Source: Halorussus salilacus
Lineage (GTDB): Archaea; Halobacteriota; Halobacteria; Halobacteriales; Haladaptataceae
DNA: 64,000 nucleotides
Direction of reading: 5' to 3'
Assembly: GCF_024138125.1 (NCBI RefSeq)
Contig: NZ_CP099993.1
Location: forward strand, 1,736,001 to 1,800,000
Position numbers and translations under genes: made by a program. Within the stretch, counting starts at the first letter, position 1; every line of letters starts with the position of its first letter. The notes beneath the pieces were generated by a model, which had not been told where the DNA came from, did not search any database, and saw only the letters and a program-made list of their open reading frames with translations. Below are positions 2,704 through 64,000 of this stretch, in pieces.

Positions 2704-2723
2704 GGTTCGTACATGGCGCGTGA

Positions 2724-2738
2724 GGATTTAAATTGTGG
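2724..2738 (-). promoter_or_regulatory. TATA box of PiT paralogue 2
   Basis: On the minus strand the sequence reads AATTTAAATCC, centred about 28 nt upstream of the ATG at 2703. This is the spacing expected for a leaderless haloarchaeal transcript. Confidence 0.6.
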
Positions 2739-2788
2739 CGATTCGCCGAGGTCACGTCGCGCGATTCCCCTCGCGGAACCGCGTTCGT

Positions 2789-2823
2789 CGCGGGGCCGAC
2801 GGCCCGAGGCCGTCGGCCCCGCG
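2789..2823. repeat. GC-rich inverted repeat (16-nt arms, 3-nt loop)
   Basis: The left arm 2789-2804 and right arm 2808-2823 are exact reverse complements around CGA. It lies in the divergent gap between the PiT pair and serA, upstream of the serA TATA-like sequence. It belongs to a group of long perfect palindromes of unrelated sequence in this window. Confidence 0.75.
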
Positions 2824-2899
2824 ATGGCCCCGAAACCGAGTGCTGGCAAATGGCGCAGGCGAAGAAAGGGTTATCCGGACCGCGAGAGTCTGGGTACTC

Positions 2900-4486
2900 A
2901 TGAAGGTCCTCGTAACGGACCCCATCGCCGACGCGGGATTGGACCGGCTTCGAGACGCGGGTCACGAGGTCGAAACCGCCTACGACGTGGAGGGCGACGC
3001 GCTCCTCTCGGCGGTCTCCGACGCGAACGCGCTGGTGGTCCGGTCCGGAACCGAAGTCACCGAGGCGGTCTTCGAGGCCGCCCCGGAGCTCGTCATCGTG
3101 GGTCGCGCCGGTATCGGCGTCGACAACATCGACATCGAATCGGCGACCGAACACGGCGTCATCGTCGCCAACGCGCCCGAGGGCAACGTCCGCGCCGCCG
3201 CCGAACACACCGTCGCGATGGCGTTCGCCAGCGCGCGCTCGATTCCGCAGGCTCACGCCCGACTCCGCGACGGCGAGTGGGCCAAGGGCGAATACCTCGG
3301 GACCGAGGTCAACGGCAAGACGCTCGTCGTCGTCGGTCTCGGTCGCGTGGGCCAAGAGGTCGCCAAGAAGCTCGACTCGCTCGGGATGGACCTCGTCGCC
3401 TACGACCCCTACATCAGCGAGGACCGCGCCGCCCAGTTGGGCGCGGAACTGGTCGAACTCGACGAGTGTCTCGACCGCGCCGACTTCCTGACGGTCCACA
3501 CGCCGCTGACCCCCGAGACCGAGGGCCTCATCTCCGAGGAGGAGCTCGCCCAGATGGAGGGCGGCTACCTCGTCAACTGCGCCCGCGGCGGCGTCGTGGA
3601 CGAGGCCGCCCTCGCTGAAGCAGTCGAGGACGGCGTGCTTGCCGGGGCGGCGGTGGACGTGTTCGCCGACGAACCCGTCTCGCCCGACAACCCCCTGCTC
3701 GACGTCGAGGACGTGGTGGTCACGCCCCACCTCGGCGCGAGCACCGAGGCGGCACAGGAGAACGTCGCCACCAGCACCGCCGACCAGATCGTGGCGGCGT
3801 TCGCCGAGGAGCCGGTGGTCAACGCCCTGAACGCGCCCTCCATCGACGAGAGCGCGTTCCCCCGCGTCGAACCCTACATCGGTCTCGCCGAGACCGCCGG
3901 GAAGATCGCCACGCAACTGCTCGACCAGCGCATCGAGTCCATCGAGGTCCACTACGAGGGCGACATCGCCGAGGAGGACGTGGACCTCGTGACCGCGAGC
4001 GCCCAGAAGGGGGTGTTCCAGCCGCTCGAATGGCAGGTCAACGCGGTCAACGCCCCCCAGATCGCCGACGAGCGCGGCGTCGAAGTGACCGAATCGAAGA
4101 CCCGACAGACCGAGGACTTCCAGAGCCTCGTCCGGGTGACGGTCGCTGGCGACGACGAGTCGGTCAGCGTCGAGGGCACGCTGTTCACGGGCGGCGAGCC
4201 CAGAATCGTCCGGGTGGACGATTACCGCGTCGACGCCATCCCCCGCGGTCACATGCTCGTGGCCCGCAACGAGGACGCGCCCGGCGTCATCGGCTTCATC
4301 GGCACCGTGCTCGGGGACCACGACATTAACATCGCGGGGATGTTCAACGCCCGCGAGGCTCACGGCGGCGAGGCGCTGACCGTCTACACGCTCGACGAGC
4401 AGGTGCCCGACGAGGCCAAGGAGGCGCTGGAGGCCGACGGGCGAATCATCGAAGTGCGGTACATCGAACTGAACGGGACGGAGTAG
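2900..4486 (+). CDS. serA: D-3-phosphoglycerate dehydrogenase
   Basis: It oxidises 3-phosphoglycerate with NAD, the first step of serine synthesis. The 528-residue protein has the D-2-hydroxyacid dehydrogenase core: a Rossmann motif VVGLGRVGQEV, the catalytic Arg in NCARGGVVDE, Glu in VFADEP and His in TPHLGAST. An intervening domain follows, then a C-terminal ACT domain (DAPGVIGFIGTVLGDHDINI) that usually senses serine. The ATG at 2900 is chosen over longer in-frame starts because the fold begins directly (MKVLVTDPIADAGLDRL) and a TATA-like GGGTTATCC lies 27 nt upstream. The length matches long-form archaeal SerA. Confidence 0.95.
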   Translation: MKVLVTDPIADAGLDRLRDAGHEVETAYDVEGDALLSAVSDANALVVRSGTEVTEAVFEAAPELVIVGRAGIGVDNIDIESATEHGVIVANAPEGNVRAAAEHTVAMAFASARSIPQAHARLRDGEWAKGEYLGTEVNGKTLVVVGLGRVGQEVAKKLDSLGMDLVAYDPYISEDRAAQLGAELVELDECLDRADFLTVHTPLTPETEGLISEEELAQMEGGYLVNCARGGVVDEAALAEAVEDGVLAGAAVDVFADEPVSPDNPLLDVEDVVVTPHLGASTEAAQENVATSTADQIVAAFAEEPVVNALNAPSIDESAFPRVEPYIGLAETAGKIATQLLDQRIESIEVHYEGDIAEEDVDLVTASAQKGVFQPLEWQVNAVNAPQIADERGVEVTESKTRQTEDFQSLVRVTVAGDDESVSVEGTLFTGGEPRIVRVDDYRVDAIPRGHMLVARNEDAPGVIGFIGTVLGDHDINIAGMFNAREAHGGEALTVYTLDEQVPDEAKEALEADGRIIEVRYIELNGTE

Positions 4487-4496
4487 ACGGACGGTT

Positions 4497-5159
4497 TCAC
4501 GCCCTGTTTCTCGCGCACCACGATTCGAAACTCTGCTCGAACTCGGTGAACAGGTTCCGGTGGAAATCGCCGATGTACGGAAGCGGATACCGCTGGTCCT
4601 CGTCGGGGGCGTGTGCCAAGTAGTCGCCCGCCTCGTCGAGACTTCCTTCCGGAGTCGCTTCGAAGTCCCGCTTTTCGAAATACAGGTGATAGTAACGGAA
4701 CCCGTCTCGTGTCGATTCGGACTCTACCGACAGACACCAGTAGTCCCCGTGTTGGAAGTCGTTTCGAAGCCCCCAGAGGAACGCGAGTCTGCGGGCGTAC
4801 TCCGGCACTCCGACCTCGCTTCGGTCGGGTAAGAACGAACGTTTGGTGACCTCGCGGTCGAGCCGTTTCGTCAAGATATCTCGTATCTGCTCGTTGTACG
4901 AGTAGAGCGACGAGACGTAATTGTGGACGAGACGATACACTTCGTTTGCGACGTCGGATTCATCCGCGTCCGCATCGACCTTTACGAGGCCAGTCGTCGT
5001 AATATCATCGCAAGCCCGTGCGAGAGCGTCGAAATTACCGTGCACGATGTACGCGGACGACCGTGCCCGCTTGATGTCGCGGTCCGTCACTGGGTACGTC
5101 GGCCCACTCCGGTCCCGAAGTAACTGATCGACTGTGTTCGTCGAACCGTCGGTCCCCAT
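4497..5159 (-). CDS. HEPN-like protein with an RX4H motif, possible RNase effector
   Basis: The 220-residue protein is largely helical by sequence. It contains LRNDFQHG, in which R132 and H137 form the R-X4-6-H catalytic motif of HEPN ribonucleases, at the start of a helix as expected. The residues before it (YARRLAFLWG) and the aromatic-rich strand-like part after it resemble stand-alone HEPN proteins, but I do not recognise a named family. It starts 12 nt after the stop of a 45-codon gene, so the two form a small operon. It could act as a toxin or abortive-infection RNase; that is inference from the motif and gene pairing. Confidence 0.5.
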   Translation of the reverse strand: MGTDGSTNTVDQLLRDRSGPTYPVTDRDIKRARSSAYIVHGNFDALARACDDITTTGLVKVDADADESDVANEVYRLVHNYVSSLYSYNEQIRDILTKRLDREVTKRSFLPDRSEVGVPEYARRLAFLWGLRNDFQHGDYWCLSVESESTRDGFRYYHLYFEKRDFEATPEGSLDEAGDYLAHAPDEDQRYPLPYIGDFHRNLFTEFEQSFESWCARNRA

Positions 5160-5171
5160 GAAATGCGACAG

Positions 5172-5309
5172 CTACCCGTTGGTTCTTCCGACTCTCTCGG
5201 CGGCCGCTTCCCGGTCCTTCCGGAGTTGCTCTTCCGTCTGCCCCGTCGTCTCGGCGAGGTCTTCGACCGTCGGTACGTGGTCCAATGCCATCTCCGTTCG
5301 GTTCAACAT
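5172..5309 (-). CDS. Tiny conserved-looking protein preceding the HEPN gene, possible antitoxin
   Basis: A 45-codon frame runs from ATG 5309 to TAG 5172. It encodes a soluble, helix-prone protein with VPTVEDLAETTGQTEEQLRK in the middle, somewhat like a small DNA-binding or dimerisation module. The second ATG at 5291 would give 39 residues. It fits better with the TATA-like CTATAACTGC centred near 5327, because a leaderless start at 5309 would be too close. The gap to the HEPN gene is 12 nt. The size, the order (small gene first) and the partner suggest an antitoxin, but no family is recognised. Confidence 0.45.
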   Translation of the reverse strand: MLNRTEMALDHVPTVEDLAETTGQTEEQLRKDREAAAERVGRTNG

Positions 5310-5418
5310 TGCAACAGACTGCAGTTATAGCTTTCGTCCCGGTCGACGCTTCGAATCGGAGAGTCGCCGCCCGCCACAACCGCCGCTTATTAGTGCGACC
5401 GCTCTCCAACCCTCGCAC

Positions 5419-6285
5419 ATGAGACACCTCGGCCTGAAGGCACGAATGGCGGTCGTCGGGTCGATACTGTTCGCGTTCTACGCCGTCGCGGCGGTCGTCG
5501 CGATGGGCGCGTTCGGATTCCCGCTCCCGCTCGTCGCACTCGGGAGCGTCGCGTTCGTCGGCGTCCAGTACAAGGTCGGCAAGTGGGCCGCGCTCCGGAG
5601 CGTCGGCGCGCAGGACATGCCCGAGGACCGATACCCGGAGGTCCATCGGCGCGTCGAATCGCTCTCGGAGTCGATGGGCATCGACAAGCCCCGGCTGATG
5701 GTCGCCAGCATGGGCGTGCCCAACGCCTTCGCGGTCGGTCGCAAGGGCGCGGGCACCGTGGTCGTCTCGGAGGAACTCCTCCGACTGCTCGACCCCGACG
5801 AGGTCGAGGGCGTCCTCGCCCACGAACTCGCCCATATCCGCAACCGCGACGTGGTGATGATGGTGCTCGGACAGGGGGTCGCCTCCATCGTCGCCATCGT
5901 CGCCCAGTGGGCGGTCCTGCTGACCGGCGACAACGACCTCGCCGACTTCTTCCTCGCTCTCGTCGTCGGCCAGATAACCCAGATGCTCGTGATGGTGTTC
6001 GTGTTCGCCATCTCGCGGTACCGCGAGTACGTCGCCGACCGCGACGCCGCCGAGCAGGTCGGCGGCGAACCCCTCGCCCACGCCCTCGAAAAGATAAGCC
6101 GGGGGAGTGAACGCGCGGCGCGAAGCGCCGCGACCAACGAGCGGCGGAGCCGCGAGCGCGCCCGCGACTCCGAGATCGACTCGGAGGTCAGCGCGCTGTG
6201 CATCTTCGGCGAGGGCGGCGGCCTCGCGCGACTGTTCGCCAGCCACCCGCCGGTCGAGAAGCGCATCGAGCGCCTCCGTAACTGA
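5419..6285 (+). CDS. htpX: HtpX-like membrane-bound M48 zinc metalloprotease
   Basis: The 288-residue protein has two N-terminal membrane helices (about residues 12-31 and 35-50) and the zinc motif HELAH at residues 135-139. A further glutamate ligand lies in REYVADRDAAE, and there is a second hydrophobic pair between them. HtpX proteases degrade misfolded membrane proteins on the cytoplasmic side. The ATG at 5419 is preceded by CTTATTAG 29 nt upstream. About residues 232-247 (ERAARSAATNERRSRERA) are encoded by a palindromic DNA element also found inside argH and ribB; this stretch is not part of the usual M48 core. Confidence 0.88.
   Translation: MRHLGLKARMAVVGSILFAFYAVAAVVAMGAFGFPLPLVALGSVAFVGVQYKVGKWAALRSVGAQDMPEDRYPEVHRRVESLSESMGIDKPRLMVASMGVPNAFAVGRKGAGTVVVSEELLRLLDPDEVEGVLAHELAHIRNRDVVMMVLGQGVASIVAIVAQWAVLLTGDNDLADFFLALVVGQITQMLVMVFVFAISRYREYVADRDAAEQVGGEPLAHALEKISRGSERAARSAATNERRSRERARDSEIDSEVSALCIFGEGGGLARLFASHPPVEKRIERLRN
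6113..6157 (+). repeat. Dispersed palindromic element, copy in htpX
   Basis: This 45-bp segment is the reverse complement of the elements at 18114-18160 (argH) and 35927-35975 (ribB), with scattered mismatches. It has the GCGCGGCG...CGCCGCG hairpin on one side and GAGCGGC...GCCGCGAGC on the other. It is one nucleotide shorter than the argH copy in the middle, so its second half is read in another frame (ERRSRER). Confidence 0.6.
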
Positions 6286-6515
6286 TGGACCTCCGAACCC
6301 TGCTGGCGGCCGTCCTCGGCGTGGGCCTCGGCCTGTTCTTCGTGGCGTATCCCGGCGTCGTGATTCGAGTCCACTCCGCGGGTCGGACGCCGACCGGCCG
6401 CGACGGCGAGTACGGCGACGAGGCGACGCCAGCGCGCTGGCGTCGCCTCGTCCGTCTCGTCGGGGTCGGACTCGCACTCGCGGGTCTCTACTTCGCGTCG
6501 ACCCTGCTCGGATAG
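6285..6515 (+). CDS. Small two-helix membrane protein
   Basis: The 76-residue protein overlaps the htpX stop by one base (TGATG), so it is translationally coupled. It has hydrophobic segments at about residues 5-27 and 56-75, joined by a hydrophilic charged loop. The loop (DEATPARWRRL) is encoded by a perfect 32-bp palindrome at 6419-6450. No function is recognised; the coupling to htpX suggests a role in membrane quality control or simply co-expression. Confidence 0.7.
   Translation: MDLRTLLAAVLGVGLGLFFVAYPGVVIRVHSAGRTPTGRDGEYGDEATPARWRRLVRLVGVGLALAGLYFASTLLG
6419..6450. repeat. Perfect 32-bp palindrome inside a coding sequence
   Basis: Arms 6419-6434 and 6435-6450 are exact reverse complements without a loop. 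The palindrome codes for the loop between the two helices of the small membrane protein. Confidence 0.8.
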
Positions 6516-6542
6516 CGACTCGGATAGCGATTCGCCTCGCGG

Positions 6543-6588
6543 GTAGGCCGGTCGCCGGACGCCCGCGGGCGTCCGGCGACCGGCCTAC
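6543..6588. terminator. Perfect 46-bp palindrome between convergent genes, possible bidirectional terminator
   Basis: The 23-bp arms are exact reverse complements with no loop, and the right end covers the thrC stop codon. It sits in the 69-bp gap between convergent genes, a place suited to a bidirectional stop signal. No T run follows on either strand, so termination is inference. Confidence 0.5.
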
Positions 6589-7865
6589 TCGCCGAGGTGT
6601 TCCAGCACGCCGTCGGTGTCGGCCGGGACCGGCTCGGGCTCCGCTCCCGCGGCGGCCGCGGCGTCGGGGTCCTTCAGCAGGTGGCCGGTCGTCAGGCAGA
6701 CGACCTGCTCGTCGGCCGATATCTCGCCTGACTCGCGGAGCTTCCGGAGTCCCGCGACCGAGGCGGCGCTCGCGGGCTCGACGCCGACGCCGTCGCGCGC
6801 CAGCGCGCGCTGGGCGTCGGTTATCTCCTCGTCCGACACCGCGACCGCGGTGCCGTCGGTCTCCCGGATACCGGGCAGGGCCTTCGGCGCGTTGACGGGG
6901 TTGCCGATGCGGATGGCGGTCGCGCGGGTCTCGACCGACTCCCAGCGTCGGACCTCGTCCCACCCGTTCTCGACGGCCTCGACCATCGGGGCCGCGCCCT
7001 CGGCCTGCACGCCGGTCAGGGCTGGCACCTCTTCGGGTGCGAGTTCCCCGGCGGCGACCAGTTCGCGGAACGCCTTGAACAGCGCCGCGGTGTTGCCCGC
7101 GTTGCCGACCGGCAGGACGATGCGGTCGGGGAGGTCGCCGGTCTGGTCGCGGAACTGCTCGACGATTTCGAGGCCGATGGTCTTCTGGCCCTCCAGTCGG
7201 AAGGGGTTGAGGGAGTTGAGGAGGTAGGCCTCCCCGCGGTCGGCGAGGTCCGAGACGATGTCGAGGCAGGCGTCGAAGTTGCCGTCGACTTCGAGGATGC
7301 GCGCGCCGTGGAGGCTGGCCTGCGCGACCTTGCCCGCCGCGACCTTCCCGGCGGGCAGGAGGACGAGGACCTCGGTGTCGGCCCGCGCGCCGTAGCACGC
7401 CAGCGCGGCGCTGGTGTTGCCCGTCGAGGCGCACGCGAGTCGGTCGACGCCGAGTCGCTCGGCGACCTTCACCCCGACCGTCATCCCGCGGTCCTTGAAG
7501 CTCCCCGTGGGGTTCATCCCCTCGTGTTTGACCCGGAGGTCGGCGACGCCCGTCTCGTCCTCGATGGTCGGCACCTCGTAGAGGGGAGTGTCGCCCTCGT
7601 CGATGCTCACGCCCGAGTCGAACGGGAGCGCGTCGGCGTATCGCCAGACCCCTCGGCGTCCCTGCTCACCCCGCGCCTCGAAGTCCTCGAAGGTCGGGAG
7701 GTCTCCGTACCGGACTTCGAGGAGGCCGCCGCACGACTCGCAGGTGTAGCGGACCGCCTCGAACGGCGGATACCGGTCTCCGCACTCGATGCAGGTCAGC
7801 CAGACGCCGTCGTCTGCTCGGTCGGGCGGCGACTCGGCTCCGGCGTCGGCCAGCGTTAGCGTCAT
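6585..7865 (-). CDS. thrC: Threonine synthase
   Basis: This PLP enzyme converts O-phosphohomoserine to threonine. The 426-residue protein opens with a zinc-ribbon-like domain (CIECGDRYPPFEAVRYTCES, about residues 25-45). The PLP lysine is in NPTGSFKDRGM, and the phosphate-binding glycine loop is in LPVGNAGNTAALF. The start at 7865 (MTLTLADAG) is preferred to a 26-residue-longer frame because the extension is atypical. The gene is single, and its 3' end runs into the palindrome at 6543-6588. Confidence 0.93.
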   Translation of the reverse strand: MTLTLADAGAESPPDRADDGVWLTCIECGDRYPPFEAVRYTCESCGGLLEVRYGDLPTFEDFEARGEQGRRGVWRYADALPFDSGVSIDEGDTPLYEVPTIEDETGVADLRVKHEGMNPTGSFKDRGMTVGVKVAERLGVDRLACASTGNTSAALACYGARADTEVLVLLPAGKVAAGKVAQASLHGARILEVDGNFDACLDIVSDLADRGEAYLLNSLNPFRLEGQKTIGLEIVEQFRDQTGDLPDRIVLPVGNAGNTAALFKAFRELVAAGELAPEEVPALTGVQAEGAAPMVEAVENGWDEVRRWESVETRATAIRIGNPVNAPKALPGIRETDGTAVAVSDEEITDAQRALARDGVGVEPASAASVAGLRKLRESGEISADEQVVCLTTGHLLKDPDAAAAAGAEPEPVPADTDGVLEHLGE

Positions 7866-12258: not shown

Positions 12259-13310
12259 GATTGCAGGGTCTCGCAGACGTCTTCGAGGACCGCGACCGCG
12301 CGGTCGAGGTCCCCGAGGTCGAGGCGTTCGTTCGGCGCGTGGTCCAACTCGGAGTCGCCGGGGCCGTAGGTCGCCATCGGGCGGTCCCACGCCCCGGCGT
12401 AGAGGTTCATGTCGCTGGTTCCGGTCTTGCGAAGTAATCGGGGGTCGCCCCCCGCTCGTCGAATCGCCGCTCGGAACGCCCGCGCGACCTCGGTCCGGGG
12501 ACTCTCCATCACGGGGGGAATCGGATCGCCCCACGCGATTTTGCCAGCGTCCAGCTCTGCCTCGACAGTCTCGCGAATCCCGGCGGCCGACTCGCCGGGC
12601 GGAATCCGGAACTGAACCTCGGCGCTGGCCTCGACCGAGAGACCGTCGTCGGCGGTCCCGCCGGAGAACACGACCGGCTTGGCGGTGACTCGCTCGAAGA
12701 CGGGCGTGTCGTCTTCCTCCTCGAACGCCTCCTCGACCCGCGACCACCACGCCATCGCCTCCTGAATCGCGTTCGGCTCGGGCCGGGAGGTGTGAGCCGA
12801 GTCGGTGGCGACCGCGTACTCTCCCGACAGGAAGCCCCGGTAGCCGAGGGTCACGCCGTCCCAGCCCGAGGGTTCGCCGTTGATTACGGCGTCGGGCGCG
12901 TCGCGGTCCTCGACCAGAAATCGGGCCCCGCGCGAATCGGTCTCCTCGCCGACGACGCCGACGAAGCTGACGCCCGTCCGGACGGCGACGACCGCCATCG
13001 CGGCGAGCGGCCCCGTGGCGTCGACGCTCCCCCGGCCCCAGAGTTCCTTCGCCCCGTCCCCGCTTTCCTCGACGCCGACCGGAATCTCGCCCGGCACGGT
13101 GTCGACGTGGGAGGTCAGCAGGACCGAGTCGTCGGCGGGCGCGCGGACGTTGCCGACCTCGTCGAGCCACACCTCGCGGTCGCGCTCCTCGAAGAAGGCC
13201 GCGAGTCGCTCGGCGGCCTCGCGCTCCTCGCCCGAGGGTGAGGGAATCGACACGAGGGCTTCGAGCAGGTCGCGGGCCGTCTCGTCGGCCTCGGCGGCGC
13301 TCGCGCTCAC
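12255..13310 (-). CDS. lysK: [LysW]-lysine/ornithine hydrolase (M20 family)
   Basis: It releases the finished amino acid (here most likely ornithine) from the LysW carrier. The 351-residue M20 metallopeptidase shows LLTSHVDTVPG with the metal His-Asp, GRGSVDATGPLAAM with the bridging Asp, VVGEETDSRGA with the Glu pair, and KTGTSDMNLY near the end. The start is GTG at 13310, chosen because it overlaps the argD stop as GTGA and the protein begins right before the fold. The argF ATG overlaps its stop. Confidence 0.9.
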   Translation of the reverse strand: MSASAAEADETARDLLEALVSIPSPSGEEREAAERLAAFFEERDREVWLDEVGNVRAPADDSVLLTSHVDTVPGEIPVGVEESGDGAKELWGRGSVDATGPLAAMAVVAVRTGVSFVGVVGEETDSRGARFLVEDRDAPDAVINGEPSGWDGVTLGYRGFLSGEYAVATDSAHTSRPEPNAIQEAMAWWSRVEEAFEEEDDTPVFERVTAKPVVFSGGTADDGLSVEASAEVQFRIPPGESAAGIRETVEAELDAGKIAWGDPIPPVMESPRTEVARAFRAAIRRAGGDPRLLRKTGTSDMNLYAGAWDRPMATYGPGDSELDHAPNERLDLGDLDRAVAVLEDVCETLQS

Positions 13311-51543: not shown

Positions 51544-51887
51544 GTGAATACCGTCGGACTGACACCAAATATACCTTCCGCCGCCCGAGTAACCGGTCTC
51601 AGTTACCCTATCGCTCGTCGAAACGGATGGTGTCTACGTTCGGAATGACCTCATAGTGTCTCGGAGTAGTGACTTCTCCGGACGCGTGGTCCGTAGAGAT
51701 ACTTAGATAAAACCGGTTACATCATCTCGGACCCAGCCGCTCTGTGTCCCCCGATTCGCATATAATTTCTCTCCAAGCGAGCTTGAACATTACCGGGCCT
51801 TTGATAAGGACTCCCCAGAATTATTATGGCAGTTGGTATCGCGTAACACGATACGATAGGCGGAATGGACGGAAAACTGATAACACC
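51544..51887. promoter_or_regulatory. 344-bp divergent control region between tupA and the formate dehydrogenase operon
   Basis: It holds the tupA TATA box (GGTATATTTG on the minus strand, 51566-51575) and an inverted pair GTAACCGGT (51589-51597)/ACCGGTTAC (51712-51720). An inverted repeat GTATCG-CGTAACA-CGATAC lies close to the fdh start (51837-51855), with AT-rich segments (51819-51828, AATTATTATG) that may be the fdh promoter. The repeats are candidate sites for the ModE-like regulator encoded nearby. No gene is present. Confidence 0.5.
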
Positions 51888-54800
51888 ATGAGTACGGAAC
51901 CGGTATCACTCGACCTCGACCGGCGCTCGTTCCTCAAGGCGAGTGCGTTAGCAGGTAGCATAGCTCTCGGTGGAAGCGGAGCCGGACAGGTGCTGGCCCA
52001 GAGCGACGACGACGTAGACGGGACCGACACCGACGCCGAACTCACCAAGACCATCTGTAACTACTGTTCGGTCGGCTGTGGCTTCCACGGCGAACGGAAG
52101 GGCGACTCCTTCGTCGGGATGGAGCCCTGGGAGGACCACCCCATAAACGCCGGATCGCTCTGCTCGAAGGGCGCGGGCATATACGAGACCGAACACTCCG
52201 AGAAACGACTCAAGCACCCGATGATCCAGGAGAACGGCGAGTGGAGCAAGCTCTCCTGGTCGGAGGCGTACGACCGACTCGCGACCGACATCCAGGCGCT
52301 GTGGCCCGACCACGACACGAGTCCGTCGGAGGCGGTCGACGTCGACGCCGAACACAGCCGCGAGAGCGTCATGTTGCTCGGCAGCGCCCACCACTCCAAC
52401 GAGGAGGCCTACGCCATCCGGAAGCTGGCGGCGTTCATGGGCACGAACAACATCGACCACCAGGCCCGCATCTGTCACTCCACCACGGTGACCGGACTGG
52501 CCAACACCTGGGGATACGGCGCGATGACGAACACCGTCCAGGACTACCGCAACTTCGACCTGGACATCATCATCGGCCAGAACCCCGCCGAAGCCCACCC
52601 CATCGCGATGCAACACATCCTAGAGGGTCAGGCCCGCGGCGGGGACATCCTCGTCCTCGACCCCCGGTTCACCAAGACCGCGGCCCACGCCGACGAGTTC
52701 ATCCGGTTCAGACCCGGCACCGACGTGGCCCTGATGATGGGCGTGGTCAAGGACCTCCGGGACCGTCACGGCCTCGCGCTCGACTCCGACGCAGACGACA
52801 CCGGCCAGAACATGCTCGCCGACCGCGTCCAAGGCTGGGAGGACGTAGACGCCGAACTCGACCAGTACGACAAGGAGACGGTCTCGGACATCACCTGGGT
52901 GTCGGTCGAGGACATCGAACGCATCGCCGACATGATCGCCGACGCTCGCCCGCACGTACAGATCGAGTGGGCGATGGGCGGCACCCAGCACAACAACGGC
53001 ACCCAGAACATCCGCTCGTACGCGATTGCGAGCCTCGCCTCGGGGAGCGCGGCCCGGAGCGGCGGCGGCCTCCAGGTGATGCGGGGCCACGCCAACGTTC
53101 AGGGCGCGACCGACCTCGCGGTCGCCAGTCACATCCTGCCGGGCTACTACGGGCTGACTCCCGGCGGCTGGTCGTGGTGGGCAGACATCTGGGACATGAA
53201 CCCCTACACCAGCGGCTCTACGTCCTTCGCCGACCTCTACGAGAAGTTCGAGCTGATGCCCCCCGAGAAGTACGCCCGACAGAGCGCGTCGTACGGGGAC
53301 GGCGATGCGGCCGACCTGCCGCCCAACGCCGACCACGGCCCCGAGAACCCGGCCGAGAACTCGATGATGTTCCAGAACGGGCTCACGGTCGCCCGCTGGT
53401 TCGAGGCCGCGCTCGACCAGGAGGACCGCTATCAGGAGACGCCGATCTACCAGCCCGACCCGGTGAAGATCGCCTTCTTCTGGGGCCACTCGGCCAACTC
53501 CATCAGCGAGATGGAGCAGATGAAAGAGGGGATGGAGAACCTCGACCTGCTCGTGGTCATCGACCTGTTCCCGGGGGTCGCGACGGTCCTGCCCGACTAC
53601 GAGGAGGGGCCGCCGGTGCTGTTGCTCCCGGCGTCGAGCCAGTACGAGCACTATCGGTCGCTCACGAACACCAATCGGTCGGTCCAGTGGTCCGAGCCGG
53701 TCGCCCCGCCGAAGCACAACTCCAAGCCCGACCTCCAGATCATGCAGGAGCTCGCCGACCACCTCGGGTTCGGCGAGCATTTCGACTGGGGGTCCGGTTC
53801 GGAGATGTACAACGGCAAGTCGTCCTACGAGGACGTCATCCGGGAGTTCAACCTCGGGACCAACACCATCGGCTACCGCCAGACGCCCGAACGCCTCCAG
53901 CAACATCTGGAGTACGACTACGCGTTCTCCAACGAGGACCTCAAGGGCGCGGAGGGGACGCCCGTCGCGGGCGAGTACTGGATGCTCCCGTGGCCGTGCT
54001 GGGGCGAGGACCACCCCGGGACGCCCATCATCTGGAACGACGACCTCGACCCCAACGACGGGGGTCAGGACTTCCGGACCCGGTGGGGCGTCAGCGCGCC
54101 GACCCCCGAGGAGTGGGAGGAGATGTCCACCGACGAACCGTACCCGTTCGAGGAGACGCTGAACGCGGTCGGCGACCGCTACGAGAGCGAGGAGGAGGCG
54201 CTCGACCTGACGCGAGCGCCGTACGTGCCCGACTGGGCCGACGACGACGACCTCGCCGAGGACGGCCAAATCCACGGCGTGCCCGAGTACCCCGGTTGGA
54301 AGACGACGCCACCGAGGAGCCTCCTCGACCCGAACCAGCGGGTCCAGCCCGACGAGCTGACGATTCCCCAGCAACACGCGCTGGACAACAGTAGCTCGGT
54401 CTACACCGCCGCGGAGGCGCTGGCAGACCCCGACACGGGGAGCGCGGCGTTCGACGAGTACCTGAACCAGAAGATCGCCCCCGGCATCGACCCGTCGTTC
54501 TACGAGGAGTACGACTACAGCCAGCCCGACGCGCCGACCGGACGCGGGCGGGCGCGGGCGGTGGTCTGGAGCTTCCTCGACAAGGTGCCGATTCACCGCG
54601 AACCCATAGAGAGCCCGCGGCCGGACCTGGTCGAGGAGTGGCCCGCGAACGGCCAACAGCACAACTTCTACCGGCTCGACCAGAACAACGGAACCGAGCA
54701 ACAGCGGGCCAACGACATCATCCACAACAGCGACGAGGGGCCGACCCTCGACACCATCATGACGACCGGCCGTCAGGTCGAACACCAGGGCGGCGGTTCG

Positions 54801-55274
54801 GAGACGCGGTCGAACGTTCACACCGCCGACCTCCAGCCCCACATGTACGCCGAGATCACGCCCGCGAAGGCGGAGGAACTCGGCGTCGACGGCGGTGACC
54901 TCGTCGTCGTCTCCTCGACCGACCGCGGGTCGGTGCTGGTGAAGGCGCGGGTGACCGACCGTCCGAACGACGAGGAGGTGTTCCTGCCGTTCCACTGGGG
55001 CGGCGTCTTCAAGGGCAAGAGCCAGGAGGACCAGTACCCCGAGGGGACGGTTCCCTACGCCATCGGCGACTCGGTGAACGCGATCACGTCGCGCGGATAC
55101 GACGTCGAGACCCAGATGCAGGAGACGAAGGTGTCGATGGTCGCGGTCCGACCCGCGACCGACGACCTGCTGGAGGAACTCAACATGGACGTCGACCTGG
55201 AGTTCCCCCAGGACCGAGACGGCGTCGGCACGCAGAAGAGCTTCGACGTCCGCGACGGGTCGACGGTCCAATGA
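51888..55274 (+). CDS. fdhA: Formate dehydrogenase catalytic subunit, Tat-exported, Cys type (W/Mo-bis-pterin)
   Basis: It oxidises formate to CO2 outside the membrane. The 1128-residue protein has a Tat signal (DLDRRSFLKASALAGSIAL) and the N-terminal 4Fe-4S motif CNYCSVGCGFHGE. The active-site segment ARICHSTTVTGL carries Cys where bacterial FDH-N has selenocysteine. GYGAMTNTVQDYRNFD, VLDPRFTKTAAHADEFIRFR and QVMRGHANVQGATDL follow the FDH-N pattern, and the C-terminal pterin domain has TDRGSVLVKARVTDR. ATG 51888 places the twin-arginine at residues 12-13. It heads a four-gene operon. Confidence 0.9.
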   Translation: MSTEPVSLDLDRRSFLKASALAGSIALGGSGAGQVLAQSDDDVDGTDTDAELTKTICNYCSVGCGFHGERKGDSFVGMEPWEDHPINAGSLCSKGAGIYETEHSEKRLKHPMIQENGEWSKLSWSEAYDRLATDIQALWPDHDTSPSEAVDVDAEHSRESVMLLGSAHHSNEEAYAIRKLAAFMGTNNIDHQARICHSTTVTGLANTWGYGAMTNTVQDYRNFDLDIIIGQNPAEAHPIAMQHILEGQARGGDILVLDPRFTKTAAHADEFIRFRPGTDVALMMGVVKDLRDRHGLALDSDADDTGQNMLADRVQGWEDVDAELDQYDKETVSDITWVSVEDIERIADMIADARPHVQIEWAMGGTQHNNGTQNIRSYAIASLASGSAARSGGGLQVMRGHANVQGATDLAVASHILPGYYGLTPGGWSWWADIWDMNPYTSGSTSFADLYEKFELMPPEKYARQSASYGDGDAADLPPNADHGPENPAENSMMFQNGLTVARWFEAALDQEDRYQETPIYQPDPVKIAFFWGHSANSISEMEQMKEGMENLDLLVVIDLFPGVATVLPDYEEGPPVLLLPASSQYEHYRSLTNTNRSVQWSEPVAPPKHNSKPDLQIMQELADHLGFGEHFDWGSGSEMYNGKSSYEDVIREFNLGTNTIGYRQTPERLQQHLEYDYAFSNEDLKGAEGTPVAGEYWMLPWPCWGEDHPGTPIIWNDDLDPNDGGQDFRTRWGVSAPTPEEWEEMSTDEPYPFEETLNAVGDRYESEEEALDLTRAPYVPDWADDDDLAEDGQIHGVPEYPGWKTTPPRSLLDPNQRVQPDELTIPQQHALDNSSSVYTAAEALADPDTGSAAFDEYLNQKIAPGIDPSFYEEYDYSQPDAPTGRGRARAVVWSFLDKVPIHREPIESPRPDLVEEWPANGQQHNFYRLDQNNGTEQQRANDIIHNSDEGPTLDTIMTTGRQVEHQGGGSETRSNVHTADLQPHMYAEITPAKAEELGVDGGDLVVVSSTDRGSVLVKARVTDRPNDEEVFLPFHWGGVFKGKSQEDQYPEGTVPYAIGDSVNAITSRGYDVETQMQETKVSMVAVRPATDDLLEELNMDVDLEFPQDRDGVGTQKSFDVRDGSTVQ

Positions 55275-55281
55275 GGTGATC
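55273..55281 (+). promoter_or_regulatory. Shine-Dalgarno sequence of fdhB
   Basis: GAGGTGATC, fully complementary to the 3' end of haloarchaeal 16S rRNA, overlaps the fdhA stop and lies 4 nt before ATG 55286. It is a rare clear example in a window of mostly leaderless genes. Confidence 0.75.
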
Positions 55282-55285
55282 AAGA

Positions 55286-55948
55286 ATGTCAAAATCAAAT
55301 CAGGAAGTGATGGGCGACGGTGTGATGGGCGTCGGCGAGAACACCCGGATATTCCCGGACGTGGAGGCCTGCATCGACTGCGGCGGATGCGTCGTCGCCT
55401 GCAAGCGAACGTGGGACGTTCCGCGAGACGAACAACGAATCAGCATCTCCACGATGCTGGAGGGCCAAGAGGGCGAGGGCGGCCTCAACGCCTCCAGCGG
55501 TCGAGCGATGGAGCAGGGGACGAGTCCGGGCGAGACCTCGATTCCGATGCAGTGTTACCACTGCGACAACGCCCCCTGCGTGTCGGTCTGTCCGACCGAC
55601 TCGCTGGTGAGCATGGAAGACGGGTTCGTGAACGTCCGCGACAGCCTGTGCATCGGCTGTCAGTACTGCCTGTCGGCGTGTCCGTTCGGCGCGCCCCAGT
55701 TCCCCGACTCCGACGAGGGCGTCGCCGACATCGTCGGTAGCGGCGGGACGATGGACAAGTGCACGATGTGCGACGAGCGCCAGGAGGTCGGGAAGGGGCC
55801 CGCCTGCGCCGAGGAGTGTTCGACCGACGCCATCCTGGTCGGCGACGCCACCCAGATCGCAGACGAACTCGAACGGCGCGACAGCGGCGTGTTCTTCAAC
55901 GACGTCGCCATGGAGATAATCTTCGGAGACGACGCGGAGGCGTTCTGA
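55286..55948 (+). CDS. fdhB: Formate dehydrogenase iron-sulfur subunit with four 4Fe-4S sites
   Basis: The 220-residue ferredoxin-type protein has four cysteine groups: CIDCGGCVVACKRTWD, CYHCDNAPCVSVCP, CIGCQYCLSACPFG, and CTMCDERQE...CAEECSTDA. These match the electron-transfer chain of DMSO reductase and FDH-N family beta subunits. It has no signal, so it would be exported with the Tat-bearing alpha subunit. It passes electrons from formate to the membrane subunits. Confidence 0.9.
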   Translation: MSKSNQEVMGDGVMGVGENTRIFPDVEACIDCGGCVVACKRTWDVPRDEQRISISTMLEGQEGEGGLNASSGRAMEQGTSPGETSIPMQCYHCDNAPCVSVCPTDSLVSMEDGFVNVRDSLCIGCQYCLSACPFGAPQFPDSDEGVADIVGSGGTMDKCTMCDERQEVGKGPACAEECSTDAILVGDATQIADELERRDSGVFFNDVAMEIIFGDDAEAF

Positions 55949-56350
55949 ATGACGGGATACGACCTCCCCGAGGACGACGTCGACACGTACAGTCGGTCGG
56001 CGATAGTCGTGGCCGCGGCGGTCAGCCTCGCGGTCACCGCGTTGCTGGCCTGGGTCGCGGCCGGGTTCGACGTCTTCTACGAGGGACTGTTCCGGGTCGG
56101 TCCGACCGTCGAGGGCGGCGGCGTCGGGGCCGACTGGGTCGCCGGGAACACGATGCCCGCGCTCGACCTCCTCATCGCGCTGGTCCACGCCGCCGACGTG
56201 ATACTCGGCGTGTTCATCCTGTTCCTGCTGTTGCTCCACTGGGCGGCCTTCCGTCGACTGGCCGCCCGGATGCGGTCGCCCGAGGAGGCCCGCGAGGGCG
56301 TCGCCGCCGACGGGGGCACCGAGCGCCCGGAGGGAGGTGAGCCCGAATGA
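55949..56350 (+). CDS. Two-helix membrane subunit of the formate dehydrogenase operon
   Basis: The 133-residue protein has helices at about residues 19-40 and 74-98 and a charged acidic C-terminal tail. Its ATG follows the fdhB stop directly (TGAATG), and its own stop overlaps the cytochrome b gene by 4 nt. By position it should be a small membrane anchor of the complex. It has His residues (LVHAADV, LLHWAAF) that could take part in heme or quinone binding; that is inference. Confidence 0.75.
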   Translation: MTGYDLPEDDVDTYSRSAIVVAAAVSLAVTALLAWVAAGFDVFYEGLFRVGPTVEGGGVGADWVAGNTMPALDLLIALVHAADVILGVFILFLLLLHWAAFRRLAARMRSPEEAREGVAADGGTERPEGGEPE

Positions 56351-57354
56351 CGAACCTCGACCACGGGAAGTTCACGCGGATGACGACGACGTTCCACTCG
56401 TTGCTGGCGCTCGACGTGTTCGCGCTCTTCTTCACGGGGTACGCCATCATGTTCAACGACCACCTCTGGTGGCTCCTCGTGCTGATGGGCGGCAACGTCG
56501 GGGTCGTGGCGCTCCACCGCATCGCCGGGCTCGGGCTCGTGGCGCTGGTGACCTTCTGGGTCGTGATGATGCTCATCACCGACACCGGCCGTAGCAACTT
56601 CCGGAAGGTCGTCCCCACGGGCGACGACATCGCCGCGTTCGTTCAGGACGTGAAGTTCATGCTGGGTCGGGCCGACGAGCGCCACCCCAACGCCCGGCAG
56701 TTCGCGGGCTACGATTCCGACGAGGTCCCCCTGCTGTCGTACGTCGGCAAGGGCGTCGTCTTCATCTTCGCCATCGAGCTGACCCTGCTGGTGATCTCCG
56801 GGCTGCTCATCTGGAGCAAGACCGGGTTGATGCAATACTTCGCGACCAAGACCGCCGCGATGGCCTTCGTCGTCTTCCACGGCCTGCTGGGCATCATCAT
56901 GCTGATGGGCGTCATGTTCCACATCTTCGAACACGGCTTCCACCCGGCGTTCTACCCGCTGGAGACCAAGGCGTTCATCCCGCGGCGGATGATTCCCGAG
57001 AGCCACGACGACGAGGATGTCGAGGGCACCGGAATCGAACGGCTGTCGCTCGCGCCGAGCTGGAATCTGGTCGCGAACCTGATGGGGGTGCTCGTCACCG
57101 TCGGCATCGTGAGCGTCATGACCGCGAGCATCGTCGACGAGGGCTATCCCGTCCCGCGGGAGCTCGCGGTCGAGGGCGGGGTGATAGAGCTCCTGCTCAC
57201 TATCGGAATCAACATCGGCATCTTCGTGCTGTTCGTGGGACTCGTGCTGTCGCTGTACGGCAACGTCATCCGACGGCGGTGGGAGCGCCAGCTCCAGGAG
57301 CAACGCGAGCGACCGACCGCGGGCGACGGCGAGGTCGCCTCGGCCGAGGACTGA
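56347..57354 (+). CDS. Cytochrome b-type membrane subunit of formate dehydrogenase
   Basis: The 335-residue protein has six or more membrane helices and His residues in the right places for heme b: TTTFHSLLALDVF near the N terminus, VALHRIAGLG, and VVFHGLLGIIMLMGVMFHIFEHG. This is the pattern of FdnI-like cytochrome b subunits that reduce quinone. A second pair of helices near the C terminus (about 230-250, 265-300) is an addition to the bacterial form. A Shine-Dalgarno GGAGGTGA lies just upstream. It closes the operon. Confidence 0.85.
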   Translation: MTNLDHGKFTRMTTTFHSLLALDVFALFFTGYAIMFNDHLWWLLVLMGGNVGVVALHRIAGLGLVALVTFWVVMMLITDTGRSNFRKVVPTGDDIAAFVQDVKFMLGRADERHPNARQFAGYDSDEVPLLSYVGKGVVFIFAIELTLLVISGLLIWSKTGLMQYFATKTAAMAFVVFHGLLGIIMLMGVMFHIFEHGFHPAFYPLETKAFIPRRMIPESHDDEDVEGTGIERLSLAPSWNLVANLMGVLVTVGIVSVMTASIVDEGYPVPRELAVEGGVIELLLTIGINIGIFVLFVGLVLSLYGNVIRRRWERQLQEQRERPTAGDGEVASAED

Positions 57355-60990: not shown

Positions 60991-62994
60991 ATGCGGCGGT
61001 CCCCGACGAGACGTGAGTTCCTCGGCACCCTCGGAGCGGGAAGCCTCGCGCCCGCGAGCGTCGGGAACGTCTCGCTGGACAATGCGACCGACCCGCTCCG
61101 GTCCCACCCCTTCGCTCCCGAACCCTCGGTCGAGTGGTCGCGCGAACTCACCGACGGACGGGTCCAGCCCCTCGAACTGGCCGACGGACGGCTCTACGTC
61201 CGGACGCTGCGCTCGATTCGGGCGCTCTCGCCCGACGGCTCCGAGCGCTGGCGGGTCGAGACCGGCGACGGCCAACCCGACGTGGTGGTCGGTCCCGACT
61301 CGGCGTATCCGGAACTCGACTCGACGCTGTACGTGACCGGAGACGAGACGGTCCGCTCGCTCGACCCCGACGACGGCGACACCGGATGGCGGTACGACAC
61401 CGAGGAGTGGACCTCGATATGGGGCGTGACCCCCGAACTCGTCCTCGTGCGCGACGGGGGAGTCACCGCCCTCTCGCGGGCCGACGGAGCGGTCCGGTGG
61501 CGGTACGACTTCGACGGACACGCGTGGCTCCGGCCGCAGTACCGCGACGGACGGCTCTACGTCGGGACGTCCGAGGCCGAACTCCACGCGCTCGACGCCC
61601 GCGACGGGTCGGTCCGGTGGCGGGTCGACCGCTCGACCGGGGAGGGTATCGAGACGGAGACGCCGAGCCTGCTCGTCGCGGCGGTCGCCGACGGCCGCGT
61701 GCTCGCGTGGAACGAAGACGACGGCACGGCGACGGCGTTCGACACCGCCGACGGGACCGAACGCTGGCAGTTCCGAACGGACGAGGCCCCGACGGGGTTC
61801 CCCGGGACTGCCGCCGACGGGACCGTCTACCTCAACGACTCGGGCACGATTCGCGCGCTCGACGCCGGAGACGGTCGCGAGCGCTGGTATGCAGACCTCG
61901 GGGCGGAGTCGGAGTGGAAACCCACGCTACTCGGCAAGGGCGTCTACGTCGGGACCGAAGACGGACTCGTGGCGTTCGACCCGGACGGTCGCGAGCGCTG
62001 GCGGGTCGACGACGGAACGCTGGCTCCCCTCGAACTCGTCGACGGCGCGCTCGTCACGGCGACCCCGGACGGAACGATGTACGGTCTCGGCGTCGACGAC
62101 GGAGCGGTCCGGTGGCGCTTCGAGTTGCCCGGCGACCTCGGGTGGATACCGGTCGCGTCCGAGGGGCGCGTCTACGTCGGCACCGATTCGGGGCGGATGG
62201 TCGCGCTCTCGGACCCCGGTCCGACGCCCGTCTACGACGCCTACCGGGCCGCCACCTCGACCGCGGGCCTCGCGGTCGGCGGCCTGCTCGGCGGCGCGCT
62301 GGCGGTCGGCGCGTATCGCTACCGAAATCGCGACGACGCCGACTCCGCCTCCGACCCCGCCCTTCCGTCCGAACCGCCCGTCTTCGAGGACTACGAACTC
62401 CTCGGAACGCTCGCCGAGACCGAGGTCGCGGAGGTCCACCGGGCCCGCGCGCCGGGCGGGACCGAGGTCGCGGTCGAGCGCGTCGCCGACGCGCTCGACC
62501 GCGACGCCTTCGCCGAGGCGCTCGTAACGTGGGCCGACCTCGACCACGAGGGCGTCCTCGACGTTCGGGCGTGGGACGCCGACCCGGTGCCGTGGGTCGC
62601 GACCGAACTCCCGGACGCGACGCTCGCCGACCGCGCGGGCGACCTGACTCCGCGCGAACTCGCCCGCGCGGTCGCCGACGCCGCCGAGACGGTCCACCGC
62701 GCCCACCGCGAGGGCGTGGTCCACGGCCGACTCGCGCCCGAGAGCGTCTGGCTCGCGGGCGGCGAGGTCCGAGTCGGCGACTGGGAACTGGCGGCCGAAC
62801 TCCGCGGGGAGTTCGACGAGTCGGACACCGACCGGCTCGCCGCGATGGTCCGCGACCTGCTCGCCGACGAGCATGTGACCGAGAACGTGGATGAGGTCCT
62901 CTCGCGCGCGCTCGCCGACGACCCCGCCGACCGCTACGACTCGGCGCTCAAGTTCGCCGACGCGCTCCGGTGGGTAGCGAGGACGGAGAAATAA
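60991..62994 (+). CDS. Tat-exported PQQ beta-propeller with a membrane helix and a C-terminal pseudokinase
   Basis: The 667-residue protein has a Tat signal (TRREFLGTLGAGSLAPASV) and about nine PQQ-type propeller repeats at residues 45-410 (e.g. GRLYVGTSEAELHALDARDG, GTVYLNDSGTIRALDAGDG). One membrane helix follows at about 423-443 (TAGLAVGGLLGGALAVGAYR). The cytoplasmic part (about 465-667) follows the Ser/Thr kinase fold: VHGRLAPESVWL at the HRD place and VGDWELA at the DFG place. The VAIK lysine is replaced (VAVERV). It therefore lacks key catalytic residues and is likely a signalling pseudokinase driven by an outside sensor. Confidence 0.8.
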   Translation: MRRSPTRREFLGTLGAGSLAPASVGNVSLDNATDPLRSHPFAPEPSVEWSRELTDGRVQPLELADGRLYVRTLRSIRALSPDGSERWRVETGDGQPDVVVGPDSAYPELDSTLYVTGDETVRSLDPDDGDTGWRYDTEEWTSIWGVTPELVLVRDGGVTALSRADGAVRWRYDFDGHAWLRPQYRDGRLYVGTSEAELHALDARDGSVRWRVDRSTGEGIETETPSLLVAAVADGRVLAWNEDDGTATAFDTADGTERWQFRTDEAPTGFPGTAADGTVYLNDSGTIRALDAGDGRERWYADLGAESEWKPTLLGKGVYVGTEDGLVAFDPDGRERWRVDDGTLAPLELVDGALVTATPDGTMYGLGVDDGAVRWRFELPGDLGWIPVASEGRVYVGTDSGRMVALSDPGPTPVYDAYRAATSTAGLAVGGLLGGALAVGAYRYRNRDDADSASDPALPSEPPVFEDYELLGTLAETEVAEVHRARAPGGTEVAVERVADALDRDAFAEALVTWADLDHEGVLDVRAWDADPVPWVATELPDATLADRAGDLTPRELARAVADAAETVHRAHREGVVHGRLAPESVWLAGGEVRVGDWELAAELRGEFDESDTDRLAAMVRDLLADEHVTENVDEVLSRALADDPADRYDSALKFADALRWVARTEK

Positions 62995-63011
62995 TAATGC
63001 CTAAAGTATAG

Positions 63012-63021
63012 GAAAGTATAC
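63012..63021 (+). promoter_or_regulatory. TATA box of the Cys-rich precursor gene
   Basis: GAAAGTATAC centred about 31 nt upstream of ATG 63048 in an AT-rich spacer, after the end of the PQQ-pseudokinase gene. Confidence 0.55.
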
Positions 63022-63047
63022 GTGATTGCTGATGAGAGGTTATTCCA

Positions 63048-63812
63048 ATGACGGAGGACTCGATTACAAGAGAGGACCTGTTGAACAGTGTCGACAGTAA
63101 CCCAGACTCGAGTTTTAGGGACATTACTACAGAACGACGTCGTACACTCAAGTCCATACTCGGTGTCGTTACTGGAAGCGCCGTCGGCTCTTTTGGACTT
63201 TCCCAGCGGTCGGCCGCAATGAGTGCGGAGGAACTCGAAACTGCACGGACCGTTGCACAAGAGTACTACTCCCCACAGAAGATTCAGCAAGTGTTCCGGA
63301 CCCACGCTTCGGAATTGGTGCAACGGTTGGCACGAGATGGATATCTCGAACGTGACACCGTTTCCGTTCTTCCAACCGATCAACTACACGACTCGGTTAA
63401 ATCCTATTCCCAAGCCTCTGAGGGTGTACTTATCAACGCGACTGCATCCGGCGGGAATCCCACTGTGAAAATCCAACTAAAATACCCGCTTTCCGAGGAA
63501 AGCGAAATCGTGTTCGTCGTCGATCCACAACGCGAACGCGGTCAAGCTTTCTTTGAGGGCAACTCCGTGGAGGAGGGAGTGAGTCACTACACCGCGAACA
63601 GGACCGGGAGTGACGACGTCATCATTCGAAGTTGCGACGAAGCGTGTGAAGACACCCCCGAATATAAATGTGCTTACACCTGCAATAAATACGATGAGTG
63701 TGGTTGTGCGAACGTGAAAATATATGATAGCTGTACCGATCACGACTGCCGCGGTTGCCATCTTATTGATTACGATTGCTCTAGTTGCGGGAATTACTCC
63801 TGTGATTTCTAG
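63048..63812 (+). CDS. Tat-type precursor with a C-terminal 12-cysteine peptide (halocin C8-like layout)
   Basis: The 254-residue protein has a twin-arginine segment after a polar lead (TERRRTLKSILGVVTGSAVG, about residues 27-46) and a middle region of about 145 residues. The last 60 residues have 12 cysteines, mostly as CxxC, CxC and DC/SC pairs (CDEAC, CGC, CRGC, CSSC). Halocin C8 is made from a precursor of this layout: Tat signal, immunity-like middle, Cys-rich peptide. The peptide sequence itself is not like halocin C8. Base composition is clearly lower in GC than the neighbours, which suggests transfer. No protease or ABC exporter is seen in the window. Confidence 0.6.
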   Translation: MTEDSITREDLLNSVDSNPDSSFRDITTERRRTLKSILGVVTGSAVGSFGLSQRSAAMSAEELETARTVAQEYYSPQKIQQVFRTHASELVQRLARDGYLERDTVSVLPTDQLHDSVKSYSQASEGVLINATASGGNPTVKIQLKYPLSEESEIVFVVDPQRERGQAFFEGNSVEEGVSHYTANRTGSDDVIIRSCDEACEDTPEYKCAYTCNKYDECGCANVKIYDSCTDHDCRGCHLIDYDCSSCGNYSCDF

Positions 63813-63854
63813 CAACAGGAATTACTCCGTGAGTTATTCATCCAATCAATAAAT

Positions 63855-64000
63855 ATGTCTGATGTATCCCTCCCGAGACGAGAATTCGTAACTGCTTTTC
63901 TTACACCACTATTATTTCATTCAGATGTAACTGACGTCACGTCGATGCGGCCGTTCGTCTCCCGTCCTAAAACAGACTGGTCGGTGGAAACCGGCGGTAC
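63855..64000 (+). CDS. Tat-signal protein, probable PQQ/beta-propeller type (3' end off the window)
   Basis: The 48 residues seen begin MSDVSLPRREFVTAFLTPLL, a twin-arginine signal. After the signal comes VSRPKTDWSVETGG. The W-S-x-E-T-x-G pattern resembles the first blade of the PQQ propeller at 60991 (SVEWSRELTDG). It follows the Cys-rich precursor gene by 42 bp on the same strand, so the two may form an operon. The assignment as a second propeller rests on few residues. Confidence 0.5.
   Translation, partial: MSDVSLPRREFVTAFLTPLLFHSDVTDVTSMRPFVSRPKTDWSVETGG

What the first reader, a model, noticed from the sequence alone, without database searches (positions are those of the whole stretch)
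60991..64000. Exported PQQ sensor with cytoplasmic pseudokinase beside a 12-cysteine halocin-like precursor and a second Tat-PQQ-like gene
Seen: a Tat signal, about nine PQQ blades, one membrane helix and a kinase fold without the VAIK Lys, HRD Asp or DFG. Next come a lower-GC Tat-type precursor ending in 60 residues with 12 cysteines, and then another Tat protein whose first mature residues look like a propeller blade. Known: halocin C8 is released from a Tat precursor whose middle acts as immunity protein. Inference: the cluster may make, sense and tolerate a secreted peptide, with the propeller as outside receptor. I know of no described system with this set.
Basis: partly seen in the sequence, partly recalled or inferred. 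Interest (0 to 1): 0.78.

Follow-up and report, generated by a model that had tools for sequence, protein, structure and literature searches.

The report
Transferred toxin-like gene beside receptor genes
In a salt-loving archaeon (Halorussus), a resident surface-receptor gene with a dead kinase domain has been joined by a low-GC, 2.9-kb DNA insert that brought a second version of the receptor and a small secreted cysteine-rich protein resembling, but not related to, known archaeal antibiotics; the genes are real, but nothing shows that they form one system.

Summary
A (60991-62994) is a Tat-exported nine-bladed PQQ propeller, one membrane helix and a degenerate kinase. The Cys gene (63048-63812) is an intact Tat precursor with 12 Cys in its last 59 residues. 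The third gene, B (63855 to 65867, beyond the window), is a full A paralogue (32% identity). The contig continues into argS; there is no protease or exporter.

Cys plus the low-GC part of B form a 2,879-bp insert. A 108-bp perfect repeat lies at its two ends, in the 3' ends of A and B. A stands next to argS across Halorussus. B belongs to a second allelic lineage of the same locus, found in H. amylolyticus and H. litoreus. Only this genome carries both.

P0003 belongs to a haloarchaeal secreted Cys-rich family absent from Pfam and NCBIfam. It is not a halocin C8: no TIGR04449 hit, and no profile similarity once the Tat peptide is removed. Its sister (Halorussus G395, all 12 Cys kept) also lies near argS, without a PQQ gene. 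In the family, one other Cys gene adjoins a PQQ-kinase gene (chance about 3%).

The three-gene system is therefore not supported. Best reading: an argS-linked recombination hot spot carrying a secreted peptide and a xenologous sensor.

The parts
60991..62994 (+). Gene A (P0001, 667 aa): resident propeller-pseudokinase. Tat start, propeller about aa 41-410, membrane helix about aa 424-442, pseudokinase about aa 465-664
61111..62220 (+). Nine-bladed PQQ/BamB-type propeller of A (aa 41-410)
   Evidence: PQQ_2 2e-39; AF2 block pLDDT mostly 75-94, 36 strands; Foldseek Cake9/Cake10 TM 0.80-0.81
62383..62982 (+). Pseudokinase domain of A (VAVE / HGR / DWE instead of VAIK / HRD / DFG)
62867..62974 (+). 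Copy 1 of the 108-bp perfect direct repeat in the 3' end of A; copy 2 lies at G000:C1:1801746-1801853 (1,746-1,853 bp past the window end) in the 3' end of B
   Evidence: (100% over 108 bp)
62975..64000 (.). Left part of the low-GC insert (repeat period 2,879 bp; runs on to about C1:1801745)
   Evidence: composition; relatives without it
63048..63812 (+). Cys gene (P0003, 254 aa): Tat signal (RRR at aa 30-32), about 135-aa middle region, 12-Cys tail
63633..63809 (+). Cys-rich tail, aa 196-254, 12 Cys, all kept in the Halorussus G395 sister protein
63855..64000 (+). Start of gene B (P0002, 670 aa; ends at C1:1801867, i.e. window-equivalent position 65867): second propeller-pseudokinase, 32% identical to A; argS follows

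Best explanation
This is a recombination hot spot next to argS in a Halorussus chromosome. Gene A is the resident, genus-conserved membrane sensor: a Tat-exported nine-bladed propeller outside, one membrane helix, and a catalytically degenerate kinase domain inside that most likely works as a binding or scaffold domain. A low-GC stretch carrying a Cys-rich secreted precursor gene plus a second, diverged allele of the sensor (B) was added by recombination in the shared 3' end of the kinase coding region. This left a 108-bp perfect repeat, with B's 3' end replaced by A's native one. Shown: gene content, the repeat, the composition break, the two lineages of the locus gene, and the insert-free state in relatives. 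Inferred: the Cys protein is exported by Tat, its 59-residue tail folds with about six disulfides and is cut free by an extracellular protease encoded elsewhere (such as a halolysin), and it acts as a secreted, probably antagonistic peptide. Inferred: propeller-pseudokinases pass an outside signal to a cytoplasmic partner. A working link between the peptide and either sensor is possible but is not needed to explain the arrangement.
For: 108-bp 100% repeat and composition break. A directly upstream of argS in relatives without Cys/B. Ends 'ADALRWAVRE' in G396, G394, G376 and the SW_6_65_15 MAG match copy 2, next to argS, while copy 1 continues into a unique tail. PQQ tree: B groups with the argS-locus genes of H. 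amylolyticus and H. litoreus, support 100/99. The argS flank varies in other species: NhaC antiporter with a 381-bp duplication of the argS 5' end in H. marinus, MscS channel in G275, ABC transporter in G386, LanM in H. litoreus. Strong full-length Cys-family matches (E<1e-10) in 41 of 394 genomes of the class. Sister Cys gene near argS without PQQ. Catalytic-loop Asp lost in 22 of 23 kinase-bearing homologues. Halolysin-released antagonistic peptides are documented (PMC12893001).
Against: No donor with Cys+B next to each other was found. A Campbell-type event requires a donor circle that joins B's end to within 53 bp of the Cys start, so a different recombination path is possible. No integrase is present. 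The antimicrobial role of the Cys family is by analogy only; the tail could bind metal. A structure prediction for the Cys protein failed (pLDDT 34). H. litoreus G163:C23 has an independent Cys / PQQ-kinase neighbour pair, which a pure chance-neighbour reading must treat as coincidence (about 3%).
Confidence: 0.68

Rival explanations
1. One reading: Cys is a halocin-like peptide precursor and A/B are its outside receptors or immunity sensors, so the three genes make, sense and tolerate one peptide.
For: Same strand, 53-bp and 42-bp gaps; Cys and B arrived together on one insert. An independent Cys next to a PQQ-kinase gene in H. litoreus. A B-type propeller gene next to LanM and two small precursor-like ORFs in H. 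litoreus.
Against: A and B orthologues lack Cys neighbours. The Cys sister lacks PQQ. The H. litoreus pair is convergent. Of about 70 Cys genes in 28 genomes only two adjoin PQQ-kinase genes. Most Cys genes stand alone.
Confidence: 0.12
2. Cys+B is a small mobile cassette that moves by recombination in the kinase 3' end, with the 108-bp repeat as its exchange site (att-like), able to loop out and restore A.
For: Perfect repeat; excision would restore an A gene ending WAVRE before argS, as in relatives. A similar duplication flanks a different insert in H. marinus.
Against: No integrase or transposase in the insert; the H. marinus duplication lies in argS, not in the kinase gene, so there is no shared site; no second copy of the cassette in 394 genomes.
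Confidence: 0.12
3. The Cys family is a secreted metal-binding (metallothionein-like) or structural disulfide protein with no antagonistic role (an alternative for the Cys gene only; compatible with the recombination account).
For: Very Cys-dense tails in some members (22 Cys in one G173 protein); no exporter or immunity gene nearby; several paralogues per genome.
Against: Tat export of a precursor with a conserved middle region and variable Cys tails fits a propeptide better; only four of the tail's Cys columns are invariant in 20 members, unlike a fixed metal site.
Confidence: 0.25

Closest known systems
Halocin C8 precursors (NCBIfam TIGR04449; Sun et al. 2005, cited in PMC12893001)
   Same: Tat signal, middle domain, Cys-rich C-terminal peptide; in one genome (G073, L048) a Cys-family gene lies about 5 kb from a true halocin C8 gene
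   Different: No TIGR04449 match in P0003; no profile similarity of middle or tail after removing Tat (probability 5.6 and 1.7, control 99.7); tail of 12 Cys in 59 polar residues
AfsK (Streptomyces; PMC1262709) and RqkA/DR2518 (Deinococcus) membrane Ser/Thr kinases with PQQ propellers
   Same: Membrane protein with kinase-fold and PQQ-propeller domains on one chain
   Different: Order reversed (propeller first, kinase fold last), Tat start, kinase catalytic residues lost, different domain of life
HapP/halolysin precursor system (PMC12893001)
   Same: Secreted precursor activated by extracellular protease encoded elsewhere, as proposed for the Cys protein
   Different: The active part of HapP is its helical N-terminus; homology was not tested and is not claimed
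BamB and designed Cake propellers
   Same: Propeller fold and PQQ-type motif
   Different: BamB is eight-bladed (from general knowledge) and part of outer-membrane assembly, which archaea lack

Membership tests
Halocin C8 family | C-terminal halocin C8 domain (TIGR04449) | tested here: not met
   No hit up to E=1 for P0003; the model finds true members elsewhere, two of them in this genome
Halocin C8 family | Homologous middle (immunity) domain | tested here: not met
   hhalign without Tat: probability 5.6 and 1.7; control halves of the Cys family 99.7
Halocin C8 family | Tat-type signal | tested here: met
   RR motif invariant in 20 relatives; only weak TAT_signal_seq scores in some relatives
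Halocin C8 family | Released peptide kills other haloarchaea; middle protects producer | not testable with these tools
   needs bench work
AfsK/RqkA-type PQQ kinases | PQQ beta-propeller | tested here: met
AfsK/RqkA-type PQQ kinases | Catalytic kinase (VAIK Lys, HRD Asp, DFG Asp) | tested here: not met
   A: VAVE/HGR/DWE; B: Lys and HRD Asp lost, EWG; HRD Asp lost in 22 of 23 homologues, G409 keeps HED
AfsK/RqkA-type PQQ kinases | Kinase N-terminal, propeller C-terminal | tested here: not met
   order reversed
Integrative element | Own integrase or transposase | tested here: not met
   only the Cys ORF and B in the insert
Integrative element | Direct repeats at the ends | tested here: met
   108 bp, 100%

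The most novel reading that the evidence does not exclude
The argS locus of Halorussus is an exchange site where secreted Cys-rich or lanthionine-type peptides travel with a matching allele of the propeller-pseudokinase, which acts as cognate receptor or immunity sensor and is swapped by recombination in the kinase 3' end, like a polymorphic toxin-immunity locus.
Probability: 0.1. Interest if true: 0.8.

Novelty: new variant of a known kind. Interest (0 to 1): 0.42.

Why it matters
It points to an unnamed family of Tat-exported Cys-rich proteins, common in haloarchaea (strong matches in at least 41 of 394 genomes, several per genome in Halorussus), that neither Pfam nor NCBIfam describes and that could be a source of new archaeal antagonistic peptides. 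It also defines an archaeal propeller-pseudokinase family with two exchangeable lineages at one locus, and a clear case of gene addition by recombination at a protein-coding site.

Tried and rejected
Halocin C8 membership: rejected. Weak hits of the Cys profile to halocin C8 genes come mostly from the Tat end. Plasmid and phage origin: no Cys relative in PLSDB, INPHARED or IMG/VR; plasmid PQQ hits are 25-32% over part of the protein. Defence-system membership: PADLOC hits are generic kinase matches. Structure of the Cys protein: single-sequence model meaningless (pLDDT 34). The pseudokinase part of the A model is low-confidence, so its fold rests on sequence matches. The genome-contig scan for P0003 found nothing and the A1 alignment was too diverged for a collection scan. 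The G395 963-aa neighbour was checked as a possible protease: only a weak transglutaminase-core match. Faster evolution of the tail than of the middle, expected of a toxin under diversifying selection, was not consistent across sister pairs. Papers: nothing on PQQ pseudokinases or on this Cys-rich family in the library.

Full report
Observation. The window is G000:C1:1736001-1800000. I took the region beyond its end as locus L009 (L009 position = window position minus 57,999). Gene A (60991-62994), the Cys gene (63048-63812) and gene B (63855 to window-equivalent 65867) are intact ORFs on one strand, followed by argS. There is no protease, exporter or integrase among them. A and B are full-length relatives (32% identity). 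Both match Pfam PQQ_2 (2e-39 and 5e-30) and only weakly the kinase models. AlphaFold with four relatives gives a confident propeller at residues 41-410 with 36 strands, i.e. nine blades, and a helix at 424-442; the kinase part is low-confidence. The best PDB folds are the designed Cake10 and Cake9 propellers, ahead of BamB. Across 23 kinase-bearing relatives the catalytic-loop Asp is lost in 22, and VAIK and DFG are degenerate: a pseudokinase family.

The insert. A nucleotide search of the genome with the finding's own DNA returned a second, 100% identical 108-bp piece 2,879 bp downstream. The two copies are the 3' ends of A and of B. GC falls from about 0.73 to 0.51 (Cys) and 0.58 (B) between them and returns to about 0.70 at argS. 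In relatives, A stands directly before argS and ends in ADALRWAVRE (G396, G394, G376, and the SW_6_65_15 MAG), which matches copy 2; the tail after copy 1 is unique. So Cys plus the body of B are most simply an addition made by recombination in the kinase 3' end.

Two lineages of one locus gene. A tree of 25 propeller-pseudokinases puts A with the argS-locus genes of other Halorussus and of two genomes of the sister genus. A third lineage sits elsewhere, beside ABC transporter genes in G275 and G386. G000 alone carries both A and B. Beyond this family, the nearest argS loci of other haloarchaea show no such gene.

A variable site. Between A (or its place) and argS, relatives carry other inserts: an NhaC antiporter in H. 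marinus, with a 381-bp, 91% duplicate of the argS 5' end; an MscS channel in G275; an ABC transporter with other genes in G386; a LanM (TIGR03897, 601 bits) with two small ORFs ending CCGLSG/CCGYSG beside a kinase-less B-type gene in H. litoreus. H. litoreus was one of five isolates chosen for lanthipeptide work (PMC10105419).

The Cys family. P0003 has no Pfam, NCBIfam, PADLOC, PHROG or PDB match worth the name. A profile of 20 relatives gives strong matches (E<1e-10) in 41 of 394 genomes of the class, a lower bound because few candidates per genome were scored. The layout is Tat signal, about 120-residue conserved middle, and a tail with roughly 6-22 Cys. With the Tat part removed, neither middle nor tail resembles halocin C8 precursors, while halves of the family find each other. 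This genome also has two true halocin C8-type genes elsewhere. The closest relative of P0003 is in G395 (40% identity, all 12 tail Cys kept, support 100/99), near argS between NhaC and a 963-aa Tat protein, with no PQQ gene.

Co-occurrence. In 28 genomes of the family I expect about 0.03 Cys / PQQ-kinase neighbour pairs by chance outside G000 and see one (G163:C23, convergent). This is my own estimate from the listed counts (sum over genomes of Cys genes times PQQ genes times two neighbours, divided by about 4,300 genes); both gene kinds sit in variable regions, so the true chance is higher. Most Cys genes stand alone.

Mechanism. Most likely A and B are surface sensors whose propeller meets an outside ligand and whose pseudokinase binds a cytoplasmic partner; this is inferred from architecture. 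The Cys protein is most likely a secreted propeptide, its tail freed by a protease from elsewhere, as shown for another haloarchaeal precursor (PMC12893001). A peptide-receptor pairing with B stays open at about 10%.

Limits. The repeat rests on one assembly without reads. The fold of the Cys protein is unknown, and no functional claim about it has been tested.

Noticed in passing
L112 (G163:C16, H. litoreus) 1871-7593: LanM lanthipeptide synthetase and two small ORFs ending in CCGLSG/CCGYSG lie beside a kinase-less B-type propeller gene at the argS locus
   Followed up: partly
L064 (G024, H. marinus) 5139-5517 and 7290-7664: 381-bp, 91% duplicate of the argS 5' end flanks an inserted NhaC antiporter gene between A and argS
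   Followed up: partly
L113, L115, L173-L179: A third propeller-pseudokinase lineage; in G275 and G386 it lies beside ABC transporter genes that look PhnCDE-like from their translations
   Followed up: partly
G000:C1:2024555 and 633978; G000:C1:2002492, 456427, 1502271: The same genome holds two halocin C8-domain genes and three further Cys-family genes
   Followed up: partly
L048 (G073) 6796-7524 and 12453-13208: A Cys-family gene about 5 kb from a true halocin C8 gene, with an ABC transporter between
   Followed up: no
L119 (G173) 6521-7183: Cys-family member with 22 Cys, metallothionein-like in density
   Followed up: no
51744-57354: Formate dehydrogenase-like cluster (Tat molybdopterin subunit, ferredoxin-type subunit, membrane subunits), judged from the translations only
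   Followed up: no
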